From: Aquipuribacter nitratireducens
GTDB taxonomy: Bacteria; Actinomycetota; Actinomycetes; Actinomycetales; JBBAYJ01
Assembly (NCBI RefSeq): GCF_037860835.1
Contig: NZ_JBBEOG010000002.1
Span: 372,001 to 436,000 of the forward strand
Reading direction: 5' to 3'
Length of the DNA stretch: 64,000 nucleotides
Part shown: one piece after another, positions 13,574-47,716 of the stretch
Layout: each line of letters starts with the position of its first letter
Numbering within the stretch: position 1 is the first letter of the stretch
Notes under the pieces: model-generated
The model's input: only the letters and a program-made list of their open reading frames with translations
The model's database searches: none
What the model was told of the DNA's origin: nothing
Position numbers and translations under genes: made by a program

Positions 13574-14196
13574 TGTCCCTCGCACCGATGGCCGTGCTCG
13601 CGGTGGAGGGGGCCGAACGTCCGGTCCTCCTCCCCGCGTACTACGACATCATCTGGTCGGCGGTCGTCTTCGTCGTCCTGTTCGTCCTGTTCTGGCGCTA
13701 CGTTCTGCCGACGTACCTCAAGGTGCTCGACGAGCGGAGCGCGAAGATCCAGGGCGGCCTGGAGAAGGCGGAGCGGGCGCAGGCCGAGGCCGACGCGAAG
13801 CTGCAGGAGTACAGCGACCAGCTCGCCGAGGCGCGCGAGGAGGCCGGCCGCATCCGCGAGCAGGCTCGAGGCGAGGGCGCGGCGATCATCGCCGAGATGC
13901 GCGGGCGCGCCCAGGCCGAGGCCGACCGCGTGACCGAGCAGGCGAAGCGGCAGATCGAGGCCGAGCGGCAGCAGGCGCTCGCCCAGCTGCGCGGCGAGGT
14001 GGGTCGCCTCGCGGTGGACCTCGCCGGTCGCGTGGTCGGGGAGTCGCTGGAGGACGAGGCGCGCCAGCGCCGGGTCGTCGACCGCTTCCTCGCCGACCTC
14101 GAGGCCGAGCAGGGCACCGGCGCCACGAGCACCACGAGCACCACGAGCACCACGAGCACCACGAGCACCACGAGCACCGGCAGCGGGACGGTCTGA
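13573..14196 (+). CDS. atpF: F1Fo ATP synthase subunit b
   Basis: Peripheral-stalk subunit of 207 residues: one N-terminal TM helix (about 25-45), then a long charged helix rich in Ala, Glu, Arg and Gln (about 55-175) that dimerises and reaches subunit delta. The last 30 residues are unusual, a Ser/Thr tail made by six 9-bp repeats and ending GSGTV; the b subunit normally ends near the delta-binding helix. Start and stop overlap atpE and atpH (TGATG), so translation is coupled. Confidence 0.95.
14123..14176 (+). repeat. 9-bp microsatellite at the atpF 3' end
   Basis: Six perfect copies of CCACGAGCA encode a (Ser-Thr-Thr)n tail of subunit b, 20 bp before its stop. Because the unit is 9 bp, slippage would lengthen or shorten the tail in frame. 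Perfect identity implies recent expansion. Confidence 0.95.
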
Positions 14197-39558: not shown

Positions 39559-40763
39559 TCCCGGCGGGCGTGCGCGCCGTGGCCCTCGCGGCGGCTGTCG
39601 TGCTGGCGGGCGCCGGGCTCGCGGGCTGCGCGGGCCTTCCGGTGGCGGAGCCGCCGCCCGTGCCCGCGACGACGGCGGAGCCCCCGGGTGTCGTGACGGC
39701 GGGCCAGGCCGCGCGGGTCCGCGCGGAGGTGGTGGCCCGGCTGCGGTCCGCTGTCGCCGCCGGTGACCCGGAGGCCGTCCGTGCCGCCGCCACGGGACCT
39801 GCGCTCGACGTGGCGCTCGCGTCCATGCCCGAGGGAGACGCCCGGACGTCGGCTCCTGCGTCGGCTCCTGCGTCGGCTGCTGCGTCGGCTGCTGCGTCGG
39901 CTGTTGCGTCGGCTCCTGCGTCGGCTCCTGCGTCGGCTCCTGCGTCGGCTCCTGCGTCGGCGTCGGCGGTGCCGAGCGAGCCGCAGGAGCCCGCGGTCGT
40001 CGAGCCGGCGAGCGTCCTGTCGCCGCGGCTCGAGGGCTGGCCGCGCTGGTTCGCCACCGTCACGGCGCCCGAGGGCGCCGGGACGCTGCCGGTCGTCGAC
40101 GTCCTCGTGTCCGAGGACCCGCGCTCCCCCTACCGGCTGTGGGGCAGCGCGACGGTGCTGCCGGGGCAGACCGTCCCCGCCCTCGACGCCGCCGGCACGG
40201 GGTCGCCCGCGCTCGACGTCGTCCCGGACGAGGCCCTCGCAACCGACGTGCCGGACGGGGACGGGGACGAGGACGCCGTGGCGGACGCGGCCCTGCGTCG
40301 CGCGCTCGCCCAGCTGCTGCCGGGGTACGTGTCCGTCCTCGGCTCCGGCGACACGAGCCCGGTGGCCGCGGCGTTCGCCCCCGACCGGTTCGTCCGGGCC
40401 ACGCAGACGCGCGCCGCCGCGGAGCGGGCCGCCGTCGGGTCGCTCGGCGGTGTCACCGTCGCCCACGGTCCGTGGCTACCGGTCGACGACGGGGTCGACG
40501 TGCTCGGTGGCCCGACCGGGACCCTGCTGGCGGCGCGGACGGCGACCGGGGACGTGCTGACCGTCACGGCCGTCACCTCCCGCGCGCAGGCGACGCCTCG
40601 CCCCGGGGCGGGTGAGGTCCGGGCGCTGCCCCCGGCGGACGGCGGAATCGAGCAGGACGGTGGTGCGTTGTCCGTGCGGACGGTCGCGGTGCTCGTCCAC
40701 CTCGTCCCGGCCGAGCGCGGGGCGGTCGAGCTCCTCGCCGTCGGCGAGGCGCCCGCGACCTGA
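39555..40763 (+). CDS. Repeat-rich lipoprotein
   Basis: Predicted surface lipoprotein of 402 residues: basic start, hydrophobic signal segment and lipobox LAGC (cysteine near residue 25). After a Pro-rich stretch comes a short helical region and then an Ala-Ser-Ala-Pro repeat (about residues 98-137) encoded by nine 12-bp units. The C-terminal domain (about 150-400) has the pattern WPRWFATVTAPEG, VLVSEDPRSPYRLWGSA and VLLAARTATGDVLTVTAV. Coupled to the upstream membrane protein. Function unknown; the repeat is a likely flexible wall-spanning linker. Confidence 0.8.
   Translation: MIPAGVRAVALAAAVVLAGAGLAGCAGLPVAEPPPVPATTAEPPGVVTAGQAARVRAEVVARLRSAVAAGDPEAVRAAATGPALDVALASMPEGDARTSAPASAPASAAASAAASAVASAPASAPASAPASAPASASAVPSEPQEPAVVEPASVLSPRLEGWPRWFATVTAPEGAGTLPVVDVLVSEDPRSPYRLWGSATVLPGQTVPALDAAGTGSPALDVVPDEALATDVPDGDGDEDAVADAALRRALAQLLPGYVSVLGSGDTSPVAAAFAPDRFVRATQTRAAAERAAVGSLGGVTVAHGPWLPVDDGVDVLGGPTGTLLAARTATGDVLTVTAVTSRAQATPRPGAGEVRALPPADGGIEQDGGALSVRTVAVLVHLVPAERGAVELLAVGEAPAT
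39849..39956 (+). repeat. 12-bp tandem repeat in the lipoprotein gene
   Basis: Nine contiguous 12-bp units of the form TCGGCTNNTGCG (six TCGGCTCCTGCG, two with GC and one with GT in place of CC) encode the Ala-Ser-Ala-Pro linker. All changes keep the reading frame and most keep Ala or Pro/Val. Confidence 0.95.
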
Positions 40764-44156: not shown

Positions 44157-45065
44157 GTGCCGCAGCCGTCGCGCGTCGTCTCGCTCCTGCCGTCCGCGAC
44201 AGAGATCGTGTACGCGCTCGGCGCCGCCGACCGGCTCGTGGGCGTCACCTACGAGTGCGACCACCCCGCCGACGCGCGCACGGACAACGCGGTCGTCGTC
44301 GGCGGCGCCGACACGAGCGGCATGACGCCCGCGGAGATCGACGCCCGGGTACGGGCGATGGCGGCGGCGGGGGAGGACCTCTACACGCTGCAGGAGGGTG
44401 CCTTGCGGGGCCTGCAGCCCGACCTCGTCCTCACGCAGGACCTGTGCCGGGTGTGCGCCCTGCCCTCCGACGTCGTCGACGACGCCCTCGCCCACCTCGG
44501 CTGCTCCGCCGACGTCGTCGCGCTCGACCCCGCCTCGCTCGACGACGTCGTCCTCTCGGTCCTCGACGTCGCGAGGGCGCTCGACGTCGTCCCGGCGGGG
44601 GAGGAGCTCGTCGCCGCGCTCCGGGCACGGCTCGACCGGGTCGCCGCCACCGTCGCCGGACGGCCGCGGCCCCGCGTCGCCGTGCTGGAGTGGGTCGACC
44701 CGCCGTTCACCGCGGGGCACTGGGTGCCCGACCTCGTGGTCGCCGCGGGCGGGCAGGAGGTGCTCGGCGCGCCTGGTGCCCGATCGGTGACGACGACGTG
44801 GGACGAGGCGGTCGCGGCCCGACCCGACGTCGTCCTCGTCGCGCCGTGCGGGTACCACCTCGACGGCGCCGTCGAGCAGGGCGGCGCGGTCGTCACCGAG
44901 CTGGCGCGCCGCGGCTGCGACGCCGCCGTGTGGGCGCTGGACGCCGACGGTCTCGTGGTCCGCCCCGGCCCACGTCTGGTCGACGGCGTCGAGGCGCTCG
45001 CGGGTGTCCTCCACCCGGACGTCGTGGGTGCCCCCGACCCCGGCGCCGCGCGCCGCCTGCGCTAG
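44157..45065 (+). CDS. BtuF-like cobalamin-binding-fold protein without signal peptide
   Basis: Class III periplasmic-binding-protein fold, 302 residues: [78 protein letters not shown]. It starts directly with the binding domain and has no signal peptide or lipobox, and no ABC permease or ATPase is nearby, so it is probably cytoplasmic. Relatives are annotated as cobalamin-binding or ABC substrate-binding proteins; ligand uncertain. Its TAG stop lies two bases before the first 31-bp repeat. Confidence 0.82.
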
Positions 45066-45067
45066 AG

Positions 45068-45222
45068 GTCTGCGTTTCTGTCGACGTCTGGCCCGGACGT
45101 CTGCGTTTCTGTCGACGTCTGCGCGAGACGTCTGCGTTTCTGTCGACGTCTGCGCCAGACGTCTGCGTTTCTGTCGACGTCAGTGCCGGACGTTGGCGTT
45201 GGTGTCGACGTGTGCTTCGGCG
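45068..45222 (+). repeat. Left array of 31-bp repeats flanking the DUF559 gene
   Basis: Five units of exactly 31 bp. The 18-bp core GTCTGCGTTTCTGTCGAC starts at 45068, 45099, 45130 and 45161, all four identical. A decayed fifth core at 45192 (GTTGGCGTTGGTGTCGAC) matches 14 of 18. Each core is followed by a different 13-bp spacer. The array ends at 45222, directly against the stop codon of the DUF559 gene, and begins two bases after the stop of the neighbour. Spacers pair with core edges, e.g. GACGTCTG-CGC-CAGACGTC. Confidence 0.95.
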
Positions 45223-46119
45223 TCAGGAGAGCAGGCGGCCGGGAGCGGGCCCGAGGACCACGCGCTGCAACTGTCCGATGAGGGCCGCTCGAGGGCCCTT
45301 CATCATCGGCGAGTTCACCTGGAGCACGCGCCAACCGAGGTCGCGCAGCTCGTTGTGGCGCCGGATGTCGACCGTCTGCCGGTCGCGGTCGAGATGGTCG
45401 AGTCCGTCGTACTCGGCGCCCGCGCGCAGCTCGGGCCAGCCCAGGTCGAGGCGAGCGACGACCTTGCCCGCCCTATCGCGGACTGGGCACTGCACGACGG
45501 GAGCGGGCAGGCCGGCATCGACGGCGATCAGGCGCAGCTCCGATTCCGGAGGTGAGTCCACTCCGTCCCGGACCAGCTCGATGACCCGGCGGGCGCGTTC
45601 GAGACCGTCGAGCCTGTGCACGACGTCCAGGAGGAGGAGCAGCTCGGCCCGGGTGCAGGACGACCACCGAAGGACGGCGTCGACCTCGGCGACCGACCGG
45701 CGCTCGTCGGAGTCCGGCCTGTTGAGTGCTCGTGCCAGATCAAGCGCCGTCCACGCGGGGCTCGCGGTGCGCCCGTAGTCACCCGCGAGCACGACCTCGG
45801 TGCCCGGGCTGAGCCGGTGCGGCGTCACCTCGTCCCGACGTCGGGGCAGACTGCCGTCGAAGCCGGCCGAGACCGACTCGGCCGCCGATGCGATCCTCGC
45901 GCCCCAGATCCATGCAGCGCTGTGCGCGGTGAAGACGGCGCGTGGGGACCGACGGCGGTAGCCGAGAGTCAGCGTGCCGTGATCGACGGGCTGCTCCGCC
46001 CCTATGCGCACTCCGTGCATCACCCGGCGGAAGCCACTCCCGTAGACCGTCGACGGCGGCAACTCGGTCAGCAGGTCCTGTGTGGCGACGGGTCCACGCA
46101 CACCGAAGGAAGGGCGCAT
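45223..46119 (-). CDS. DUF559 (Vsr-like fold) nuclease-family protein
   Basis: A 298-residue protein with an N-terminal winged-helix-like region similar to AbiEi antitoxin-type proteins (VATQDLLTELPPSTVYGSGFRRVMHGV) and a C-terminal DUF559 domain of the very-short-patch-repair/PD-(D/E)xK fold. Candidate active-site residues are E192/E194 (PPESELRL), D225 (ARLDLGWPE) and E236 with D238 (AEYDGLDHL), followed by NELRDLGWRVLQV. Cellular function of the family is unsettled. ATG 46119 is used; ATG 46137 would add six residues. No partner gene is adjacent; inverted repeat arrays bracket it. It interrupts the usual glgB-mak neighbourhood, suggesting insertion. Confidence 0.85.
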   Translation of the reverse strand: MRPSFGVRGPVATQDLLTELPPSTVYGSGFRRVMHGVRIGAEQPVDHGTLTLGYRRRSPRAVFTAHSAAWIWGARIASAAESVSAGFDGSLPRRRDEVTPHRLSPGTEVVLAGDYGRTASPAWTALDLARALNRPDSDERRSVAEVDAVLRWSSCTRAELLLLLDVVHRLDGLERARRVIELVRDGVDSPPESELRLIAVDAGLPAPVVQCPVRDRAGKVVARLDLGWPELRAGAEYDGLDHLDRDRQTVDIRRHNELRDLGWRVLQVNSPMMKGPRAALIGQLQRVVLGPAPGRLLS

Positions 46120-46137
46120 GGGCCGAGCGCACCTCAT

Positions 46138-46224
46138 GGTGGTTCGGGTCGCCGCCCGCTGGACGTGAGGCTGTGGACGACGTCGCCAGCCGAAGGGCTG
46201 TGAAGACGTCGGTGGCGCGCGCAG
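46138..46224 (-). promoter_or_regulatory. Probable promoter region of the DUF559 gene
   Basis: The 87 bp between the gene start and the right repeat array hold no ORF and no clear -10 or Shine-Dalgarno. The promoter must lie here or within the repeats, making repeat-dependent control possible. Confidence 0.25.
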
Positions 46225-46366
46225 GTCGACAGGCGAGCGGCCGTGCCGTGCAGACGTCGACACGAATGCAGACGTACGGCGCGTATGTCGACACGAGTGC
46301 AGACGTAGGGCACGACCGTCGACACGAATGCAGACAGACAGCACGGTTGTCGACAGAAACGCAGAC
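46225..46366 (-). repeat. Right array of 31-bp repeats, inverted to the left array
   Basis: Reading the minus strand from the outside, cores lie at 46366-46349 (identical to the left-array core), 46335-46318, 46304-46287, 46273-46256 (GTCTGCATTCGTGTCGAC or GTCTGCACTCGTGTCGAC) and a decayed one at 46242-46225 (12 of 18). The 31-bp period is exact. As on the left, the decayed unit is nearest the gene. The array ends 12 bp from the maltokinase stop. Confidence 0.93.
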
Positions 46367-46378
46367 GGGCGGGGCGGG

Positions 46379-47712
46379 TCAGAGGAGGCGCTCGACGGCC
46401 GCGAGCGGGATGCGCAGCCACGACGGGCGGTTGCGCGCCTCGTACACCACCTCGTAGAGCGCCTTGTCGAGCTCGAGCGCGCGGAGGAGGACGTCGTCCT
46501 CGCGGGGGTCGCGACCGGCGACGGACCCGTAGCCGCCGCAGAACGCGTCCCGCGCCTCGGCCGCCCACGCGTCCGGGTCGGTACCGGGGGAGCCCGCGCC
46601 GGTGACGGCGTCGTGGCCGGCGGCGTAGTCGAAGGAGCGCAGCACACCCGCGACGTCGCGCAGCGCGAGGTCGGGGAGGACGCGCTCGGCGAGCGGGCGC
46701 AGCGGCTCACCCTCGAAGTCGAGGAGCACCCAGCCGCGACCGGGCGCGTGCAGCACCTGACCGAGGTGGAGGTCGCCGTGGACACGCTGCAGCGCGGGCA
46801 GGTCGGGCAACGAGGCCAGCGCGGCCTCGTGCCGCTGCAGGGCCCCGTCGTGGGGTGCGAGCTCGGCGACCGCGTGGCGCGCCCACGCCGACCGCGACCG
46901 CAGGGTCGCGACGGTCCGGTCCCGGGCGGCGTCGTCGACGTCGACCGTGCCGAAGGCGTGCGCGAGGTCGAGGTGGACCCGGGCGACGGCCTCCCCGAGA
47001 CCGCGGGCCTGCTCGGCGAAGGAGTCGCCCGCGCGGAGGGCGGCGAGGGCGACCCGCCACGCGTCCTCGGAGCCCGCGAGGAACTCCACGGCCACCGCGA
47101 GGTGCCCCGACACGGTCGACCCGTCCGCCAGGGTCCAGCTCCCGCTCGACCAGCCGCGCAGGGCCGGCGTGGCCGACGCGCCCTCGCGCGTGAGGCCCGC
47201 GAGCACCTCGACGTCCGGGTTCGCCCCGGGGTGGAGGGTGCGGAACACCTTGACGATCGACGGCGGCTCGCCGGACACGATGATGCTCGTGTTCGACTGC
47301 TCGCCGCTGAGGACCTTCGCCGGTCCCCGGGCCACGCCGTCCCCGCCCTCGGGCACCTCGAACGCGTCGAGGAGCGCCGCGACGTACGCGGGGTCGTGGG
47401 GGCCGTCGTACACGTGACGCGTGCCGTCGGCGCCCTCGAGCGCGCCGACGAGCGCCGCCTCGGCGTCCTCCCGCGGCTCGCGTCGCCCCACGAGCGGCAC
47501 CTGGACCACGTCGACCCGGTCCCCGGAGTCGAGGGCGACGACGTGCACCGTCACCTGCGCGTCGCCGTCCACGGACGCACCCGGCAGGTCCCACGCCGCC
47601 AGCGGGCGCAGTCCCACCCCGCGTCCCTTCGCGGGGTACCAGCGCTGTCGCGGCATCCACGCGTGGAGCACGTGCTCCAGCGCCGCCGACCACGGCAGGG
47701 CGACGGCGCCCG

Positions 47713-47716
<4 letters not shown>
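46379..47716 (-). CDS. mak: Maltokinase
   Basis: Phosphorylates maltose with ATP to maltose-1-phosphate, the GlgE donor (Pep2/Mak). The 445 residues have an aminoglycoside-phosphotransferase-like kinase fold: N-cap WMPRQRWYPAKGRGV typical of maltokinases, catalytic loop VHGDLHLGQVLHA, and metal-binding VLLDFEGEPLRP. GTG 47716 overlaps the treS stop by four bases, so the two are coupled; in many actinobacteria treS and mak are fused or adjacent. Confidence 0.94.

What the first reader, a model, noticed from the sequence alone, without database searches (positions are those of the whole stretch)
45068..46366. DUF559 nuclease gene bracketed by inverted arrays of five 31-bp repeats
A single nuclease-fold gene is enclosed by two arrays with an exact 31-bp period and an 18-bp core GTCTGCGTTTCTGTCGAC. 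The arrays are mirror images: five units each, the decayed unit next to the gene on both sides, the outermost cores identical. They abut the stop codons on the left side (gene stop at 45223; neighbour stop two bases before 45068) and lie 12 bp from the maltokinase stop on the right. The whole behaves like a 1.3-kb islet. It may be a nuclease-mobilised or nuclease-controlled repeat element, analogous in logic to REP/RAYT pairs but with a different enzyme, or a solitary defence gene with its recognition array.
Basis: partly seen in the sequence, partly recalled or inferred. Interest (0 to 1): 0.8.

Follow-up and report, generated by a model that had tools for sequence, protein, structure and literature searches.

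The report
Nuclease gene bracketed by own repeats
A bacterial DNA-cutting enzyme gene sits between two inward-facing rows of short DNA repeats, and its relatives in many actinobacteria do the same, each lineage with its own repeat, which in some genomes has spread to dozens or over a hundred other places.

Summary
In detail: a solitary nuclease gene (45223-46119, -) lies between two inward-facing five-unit arrays with a 31-bp period. The "1.3-kb mobile islet" reading is not supported. The gene sits at the same treS-mak-X-btuF-glgB site in two congeners, one of which lacks this core, and the core forms 11 further array clusters in the genome.

The idea that nuclease and repeat belong together survives and reaches beyond this window. 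Among 155 distinct homologous loci, 81 carry strong inverted repeats across the two flanks (score >=18). Of 595 control genes, taken from the 80 named loci, none does. The motif covaries with the protein. Tandem periods fall near multiples of 10.4 bp. In three genomes one such motif has 87-142 copies, often as hairpin pairs.

The protein models as an AbiEi-type DNA-binding module fused to a Vsr/I-Bth0305I-type nuclease. I read this as a REP/RAYT-like enzyme-repeat pair built on an unrelated enzyme. Binding is likely and mobilisation possible; neither was shown. Against it: two repeat-rich genomes without a detected cognate gene, 37 of 155 loci without clear repeats, weak dispersal in Micromonosporaceae, and no clean insertion junction.

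The parts
45068..45211 (+). left array: five 31-bp units (18-bp core + 13-bp spacer), pointing toward the nuclease gene, starting 2 bp after the btuF-like stop codon
45223..46119 (-). solitary AbiEi-Vsr fusion nuclease (borderline DUF559/MTES_1575 by Pfam), 298 aa; residues 1-184 AbiEi-like fold, 187-293 Vsr-type nuclease fold
46225..46366 (-). right array: five 31-bp units, pointing toward the nuclease gene, starting 12 bp after the maltokinase stop codon; outermost core perfect, innermost decayed
44157..45065 (+). flanking gene, periplasmic binding protein (PF01497); the left array follows its stop
46379..47716 (-). flanking gene, maltokinase (Mak_N_cap); the right array follows its stop

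Best explanation
The gene and its two arrays are one enzyme-repeat unit of a family found across many actinobacterial genera. The protein is an AbiEi-type DNA-binding module fused to a Vsr/EDxHD-type nuclease. Its cognate sites are short motifs, often repeated in tandem at whole helical turns, bracketing its own gene (SHOWN by sequence: bracketing, inward orientation in the window and in one clade, covariation with the protein, phasing). The protein most likely binds these sites cooperatively on one face of the DNA and so controls its own locus (INFERRED from the AbiEi fold, published AbiEi/Rv2827c binding to promoter inverted repeats, and the phasing). In some lineages the same motif has spread to tens or over a hundred intergenic sites as inverted hairpin pairs or tandem arrays (SHOWN as distribution). 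I propose that nicking or cutting of the sites by the cognate nuclease drives their copying and tandem expansion, as is thought of RAYTs and REPINs (INFERRED, unproven). In the window each array follows the stop of one of the two flanking genes and both face the nuclease gene, which gives the mirror symmetry.
For: Cross-flank inverted repeats (score >=18): 34 of 73 DUF559-family loci vs 0 of 595 other genes in the same loci (near-duplicates included); with duplicates dropped 31 of 64 vs 0 of 415, and at >=16 36 of 64 vs 0 of 110 control genes with >=100 bp intergenic on both sides; 81 of 155 distinct loci at >=18 in the enlarged set, 79 of 153 without the window and its G001 ortholog. Motif similarity follows protein similarity: Mantel r 0.52, 0 of 2000 permutations reach it. 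In one clade of 29 members, 28 have inverted repeats >=16 and 14 have TGATCATG facing inward on both sides, against 2 with any outward copy; members with this motif lie at several loci without shared neighbour genes. Tandem periods sit near multiples of 10.45 bp, also after dereplication (n=35, R 0.50, p 1e-4). GTGATCATGCAC has >=7 copies in 8 of 248 genomes; 6 of these 8 hold a clade member vs 14 of the other 240, Fisher p 3e-6. Dispersed sites that I picked are intergenic in 19 of 20 (G006) and 19 of 20 (G024). Fold. Conserved acidic and histidine residues in 110 homologs: E192 110, D225 108, E236 106, D251 104, H242 95. Own genus: 36 array clusters, 35 intergenic, 24 of 32 oriented ones sense with the upstream gene.
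Against: G034 (142 copies) and G201 (12 copies) are repeat-rich with no clade member found at the thresholds used; the three G034 DUF559 genes fetched carry other motifs. 37 of 155 loci have no cross-flank repeat, inverted or direct, at >=15, among them the window's own G002 ortholog (inverted score 13). 14 of 20 clade genomes have fewer than 7 copies of that exact 12-mer. In Micromonosporaceae the spread is weak and partly within control counts; G103 has only the four bracketing copies of AGAGTGGCTAT. No clean insertion junction was found. A similar bracket in G000 surrounds a small secreted-protein gene with no nuclease (L061). Paired change in the spacer hairpin is not significant (245 of 2000 shuffles). 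The window protein itself has no AbiEi match in PADLOC, only a weak ZorE one (E 0.0075). No binding or cleavage data exist.
Confidence: 0.6

Rival explanations
1. The repeats are only operators: the protein is a solitary AbiEi-like autorepressor with a nuclease tail, and dispersed copies are a regulon or relics without mobility.
For: AbiEi fold; AbiEi and Rv2827c bind inverted repeats in their own promoters (PMC7319586, abstract); helical phasing fits cooperative binding.
Against: Repeats also lie downstream of the gene. In the window's genus the arrays are mostly between convergent genes or in tandem gaps (17 of 36 clusters convergent, 16 tandem, 3 divergent), not at promoters. Copy number reaches 142 per genome, and the fetched G034 sites are hairpin pairs in 5 of 6.
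Confidence: 0.25
2. A solitary defence nuclease whose arrays mark or titrate the enzyme on the chromosome; foreign DNA carrying the motif would be cut.
For: One PADLOC AbiEi model matches 83 of 110 homologs; nuclease fold.
Against: The two neighbours in the window are a periplasmic binding protein and maltokinase, not a defence partner; no test of anti-phage action was possible; it gives no reason why the motif should be dispersed at 3' ends.
Confidence: 0.1
3. The repeats are an independent REP-like or terminator-like family that favours 3' ends, and the nuclease gene lies between two arrays by accident.
For: In G000 and G001 32 of 36 array clusters are not beside the nuclease gene, and L061 shows the same bracket around another gene.
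Against: Family-wide bracketing against 0 of 595 controls, motif-protein covariation, and clade-specific motifs at non-syntenic loci.
Confidence: 0.05

Closest known systems
REP/REPIN elements with RAYT (Y1 HUH) transposases
   Same: Enzyme gene flanked by short repeats; repeats dispersed between genes as inverted pairs; different repeat per enzyme lineage (RAYT side: passages of PMC3116915).
   Different: No Y1_Tnp in the three genomes of the genus. The enzyme is an AbiEi-Vsr fusion. Many of the flanks are phased tandem arrays. A GTAG or CGTC tag was not tested for.
CGTC-tagged REPs without a known transposase (PMC3733652)
   Same: Dispersed palindromic repeats lacking a known HUH partner; REPs in general lie mostly downstream of genes.
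   Different: That paper reports them in five phyla, does not use the word Actinobacteria in its main text, and found no enzyme partner (abstract and passages read).
AbiE type IV toxin-antitoxin antitoxin (AbiEi, Rv2827c)
   Same: Fold of residues 1-184 (6y8q, Z 10.8); the known members bind inverted repeats in their promoter (PMC7319586, abstract).
   Different: No toxin gene beside it in the window; nuclease domain fused; repeats on both sides and dispersed.
EDxHD homing endonuclease I-Bth0305I / Vsr mismatch nuclease
   Same: Fold of residues 187-293 (3r3p Z 12.6; 1cw0 Z 10.8, 27% identity). The label EDxHD for I-Bth0305I is recalled.
   Different: Repeats flank a free-standing gene; the DNA-binding module is AbiEi-like; homing was not tested.

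Membership tests
REP/RAYT (REPtron) | Y1 HUH tyrosine transposase encoded in the genome | tested here: not met
   PF01797: 0 of 3 genomes of the genus (G000-G002); the search rings in 5 of 14 control genomes
REP/RAYT (REPtron) | enzyme gene flanked by the repeats | tested here: met
REP/RAYT (REPtron) | repeats dispersed between genes as inverted pairs | tested here: met
   hand-picked G006, G024 and G034 sites; in the window's genus mostly tandem arrays, with clear inverted pairs at 3 sites
REP/RAYT (REPtron) | mobility of the repeats | tested here: inconclusive
   one empty-site comparison, junction too diverged; 1 orthologous pair among 20 G006 and 20 G024 sampled sites, at a blastn limit of 1e-20
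AbiE type IV toxin-antitoxin | AbiEi-type fold | tested here: met
   6y8q Z 10.8, rmsd 6.2 over 175 residues; a PADLOC AbiEi model in 83 of 110 homologs, but not in the window protein
AbiE type IV toxin-antitoxin | adjacent AbiEii nucleotidyltransferase toxin | tested here: not met
   both neighbours in the window have other Pfam families; same gene order by predicted genes in L088 and L100. Other homologs' neighbours were not scanned
EDxHD/Vsr-type nuclease | Vsr-like catalytic fold | tested here: met
   3r3p Z 12.6, rmsd 2.5 over 94; 1cw0 Z 10.8, rmsd 2.2 over 99
EDxHD/Vsr-type nuclease | known catalytic residues in place and active | tested here: inconclusive
   conserved E192, D225, E236, D251, H242; not matched residue by residue to the known active sites, activity not tested
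Homing endonuclease | cuts the allele that lacks it and is copied in | not testable with these tools
   needs a cross or a cleavage assay
Insertion sequence with TIRs | target duplication and multiple near-identical copies | tested here: inconclusive
   the window gene's best other match in its own genome is 42% identical; target duplications were not examined

The most novel reading that the evidence does not exclude
A new class of bacterial enzyme-repeat replicators: AbiEi-Vsr fusion nucleases copy and spread their own helically phased recognition repeats through actinobacterial genomes, doing with a Vsr-type nuclease what RAYTs are thought to do with HUH chemistry.
Probability: 0.4. Interest if true: 0.95.

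Novelty: categorically new. Interest (0 to 1): 0.85.

Why it matters
Repeat families without a known mobilising enzyme are an open puzzle (CGTC REPs, PMC3733652). Here a common but unexplained kind of gene (DUF559/MTES_1575 with an AbiEi module) is tied to its own repeats by bracketing, orientation, helical phase and covariation. If the nuclease moves the repeats, it is a second, independent solution to the REP/RAYT problem. If it only binds them, it still gives many of these proteins a predicted DNA target that can be read from the gene's flanks. Either way a large uncharacterised family becomes directly testable.

Tried and rejected
Rejected: CRISPR (18-bp core with semi-conserved 13-bp spacers; two Rfam matches, both far below the gathering scores). 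Rejected: recent 1.3-kb insertion (gene at the same site in G001 and G002). Rejected: RAYT partner in this genus. Not borne out: RNA hairpin by covariation of the spacer. Led nowhere: two-unit pattern in genome contigs, 0 hits (records of the own or very near genomes may be left out); the islet in plasmids by blastn, none; empty-site alignment too diverged. In some searches I took all loci as + strand, so flanks and reading frames were partly misplaced; redid this with correct strands and replace them. Structural matches lower (nucleotidyltransferases, TnsA, AbaSI) were not pursued. Rows dropped before counts: 7 of 80 loci with short flanks; 13 duplicates and 6 with short flanks; single hits with 3 or more mismatches.

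Literature: 10 searches answered; I saw no title or abstract opening among those listed that links DUF559/AbiEi-type nucleases to flanking repeats. The library holds only open PMC papers and no full bioRxiv, so absence there is not absence in print. PMC3733652: outline with abstract, and passages. PMC7319586: outline with abstract. PMC3116915: passages. No whole paper was read.

Full report
WHAT IS THERE. The window holds two arrays of five 31-bp units around one gene. The units face the gene from both sides. The left array starts 2 bp after the stop of a PF01497 gene, the right array 12 bp after the stop of maltokinase. The core is far above chance (7 matches with up to 3 mismatches, 0.11 expected).

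NOT AN ISLET. The exact core is found in 1 of 99 genomes, the window's own, with 11 copies. With up to 3 mismatches it has 37 matches in G000, 81 in G001 and 2 in G002; the reversed control gives 1, 0 and 0. In the window and 42 fetched loci I counted 36 array clusters (2 in the window, 11 elsewhere in G000, 23 in G001), dropping single hits with 3 or more mismatches: 35 are intergenic, 17 between convergent genes, 16 in tandem gaps, 3 divergent. Of the 32 with one orientation, 24 read sense with the gene upstream, starting 0-85 bp after its stop, and 8 do not. Four of the 36 flank the nuclease gene (two in the window, two in L088); by the coordinates no other DUF559-family match lies within about 7 kb of an array. 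G001 has the orthologous gene between arrays at the same site. G002 has the gene at the same site without this core, but with another inverted motif on both sides; the 2 exact matches to that motif among its 13 matches in G002 are at this locus. By my later measure the G002 locus stays below threshold (13).

THE FAMILY TEST. That G002 result led me to test other homologs. I collected 80 named loci and compared the 400 bp upstream with the reverse complement of the 400 bp downstream. Seven had flanks too short. Score >=18: 34 of 73 DUF559 loci, 0 of 595 other genes in the same loci; direct repeats >=18: 35 of 73 against 5 of 595. still held near-duplicates; with these dropped and a stricter choice of control genes it is 31 of 64 against 0 of 415. 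To answer the objection that orphan genes have roomier flanks, I kept controls with at least 100 bp intergenic on both sides: at >=16, 0 of 110, against 36 of 64. With loci from relatives added, 174 loci gave 161 distinct, 155 with usable flanks: 81 inverted at >=18, 95 at >=16, and 118 with an inverted or direct repeat at >=15, a level that 11 (inverted) and 14 (direct) of the 595 controls also reach. No controls were drawn for the added loci. Repeats were inverted-only in 25, direct-only in 10, and both (hairpin-like) in 70. The association is strong but not universal: 37 of 155 show nothing at >=15.

MOTIF FOLLOWS PROTEIN. Among the 95 loci at >=16, motif similarity and protein similarity correlate (Mantel r 0.52; 0 of 2000 permutations). 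Much of this comes from close pairs; below 45% of the self score r is 0.20. In the clade around L048 (29 members, E <=1e-40), 28 have inverted repeats at >=16. Fourteen carry TGATCATG inward on both sides; of the other 15, nine show a GATC-containing variant by eye and the rest other motifs or none; 2 of 29 have any outward copy. In a 14-locus subset some share neighbour genes (L313, L315, L365; L316, L345, L348; L342, L343) and others do not, so the motif goes with the protein at several unrelated loci.

PHASING. Tandem periods in the flanks cluster near 20-21, 31-33 and 40-42 bp. 73 of 155 loci reach the tandem score used. After dereplication by protein similarity the phase at 10.45 bp remains (n=47, 35, 29; p 0.0003, 0.0001 and 0 of 20000 jittered sets). 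Whole helical turns suggest that proteins bind the units on one face of the DNA. Nearby trial periods score as well or better, so I rely on the phase being near zero at 10.4, not on the peak.

DISPERSAL. GTGATCATGCAC occurs 87, 104 and 142 times in G006, G024 and G034 (copies at the gene included), 7 times in G018 and 0-3 times in the other 55; the reversed control is 0 in all 59 genomes. In 248 genomes, 8 have seven or more copies, a threshold chosen after seeing the counts; 6 of these 8 and 14 of the other 240 have a clade member (Fisher p 3e-6, not corrected for kinship). G034 and G201 are exceptions. I fetched 20 G006 and 20 G024 sites, chosen by hand from the listings and so leaning to clustered hits: 19 and 19 are intergenic, 16 and 16 contain an opposed pair. 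In Micromonosporaceae the evidence is weaker. GGAGGCCACTAC has 3-25 copies in the seven genomes whose fetched locus carries it and 0-14 in the other 18, with a reversed control of up to 5. AGAGTGGCTAT has 4-13 copies in four genomes fetched through loci of this type (one, G100, has a one-base variant at its own locus) and 0-5 in the other 21, control 0-1; in G103 all four are the bracketing copies. The other genomes may hold unseen cognate genes.

THE PROTEIN. The AlphaFold2 model has mean pLDDT 94.7. Residues 1-184 match AbiEi (6y8q, Z 10.8, rmsd 6.2, 175 residues) and 187-293 match the I-Bth0305I catalytic domain (Z 12.6, rmsd 2.5, 94) and Vsr (1cw0, Z 10.8, rmsd 2.2, 99). Foldseek alone gave no match at E <=0.001; its best was Rv2827c (E 0.0024). 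Of 110 homologs (of 145 available, chosen by me for spread), 96 match MTES_1575 and 65 DUF559 at E <=0.01; the window protein matches neither at that level. E192 is invariant; D225, E236, D251 and H242 are conserved in 108, 106, 104 and 95. Published AbiEi proteins bind inverted repeats in their own promoters (PMC7319586, abstract). tblastn with the window protein finds 5 of 72,556 plasmid records and 1 of 50,697 phage records.

MECHANISM. Shown: bracketing, covariation, phasing, dispersal, fold of the model. Inferred: the protein binds its own motif. Speculative: the nuclease drives copying and array growth. The 3' location can be explained by tolerance of insertions there, as for REPs; that is general knowledge, not a test. 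A clean filled/empty pair is still missing.

TAXONOMY. It belongs to the same order as G043, whose contigs 11 and 21 have the same lengths (106,861 and 42,297 bases) as two contigs of an uncultured Pseudokineococcus.

Noticed in passing
L061:5762-6402 (G000 C2 149761-150401): Same inverted bracket of 31-bp arrays around a small secreted-protein gene with no nuclease; the G001 counterpart (L083) shows cores on one side only.
   Followed up: partly
G034 (L394-L399): 142 copies of GTGATCATGCAC in the genome; five of the six fetched sites are compact hairpin pairs, four of these five between convergent genes; no clade nuclease at E<=1e-10: an orphan repeat family.
   Followed up: partly
L316 and L358 (G009): Two paralogous nucleases, 73% identical, each with inward GTGATCATGG arrays in one genome: gene and arrays seem duplicated together.
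   Followed up: no
L062:5218-5266: Perfect inverted pair of the window core (18 bp, 13-bp spacer) inside the end of a predicted gene.
   Followed up: partly
window 39847-39961 and 14123-14178: Short-period tandem repeats (12 bp x 9.6, 96% matches; 9 bp x 6.2, 100% matches) apart from the arrays.
   Followed up: no
L392 (G034 C88): Another DUF559-family gene with long direct repeats (score 85) of a GTGATCA-containing motif on both sides.
   Followed up: no
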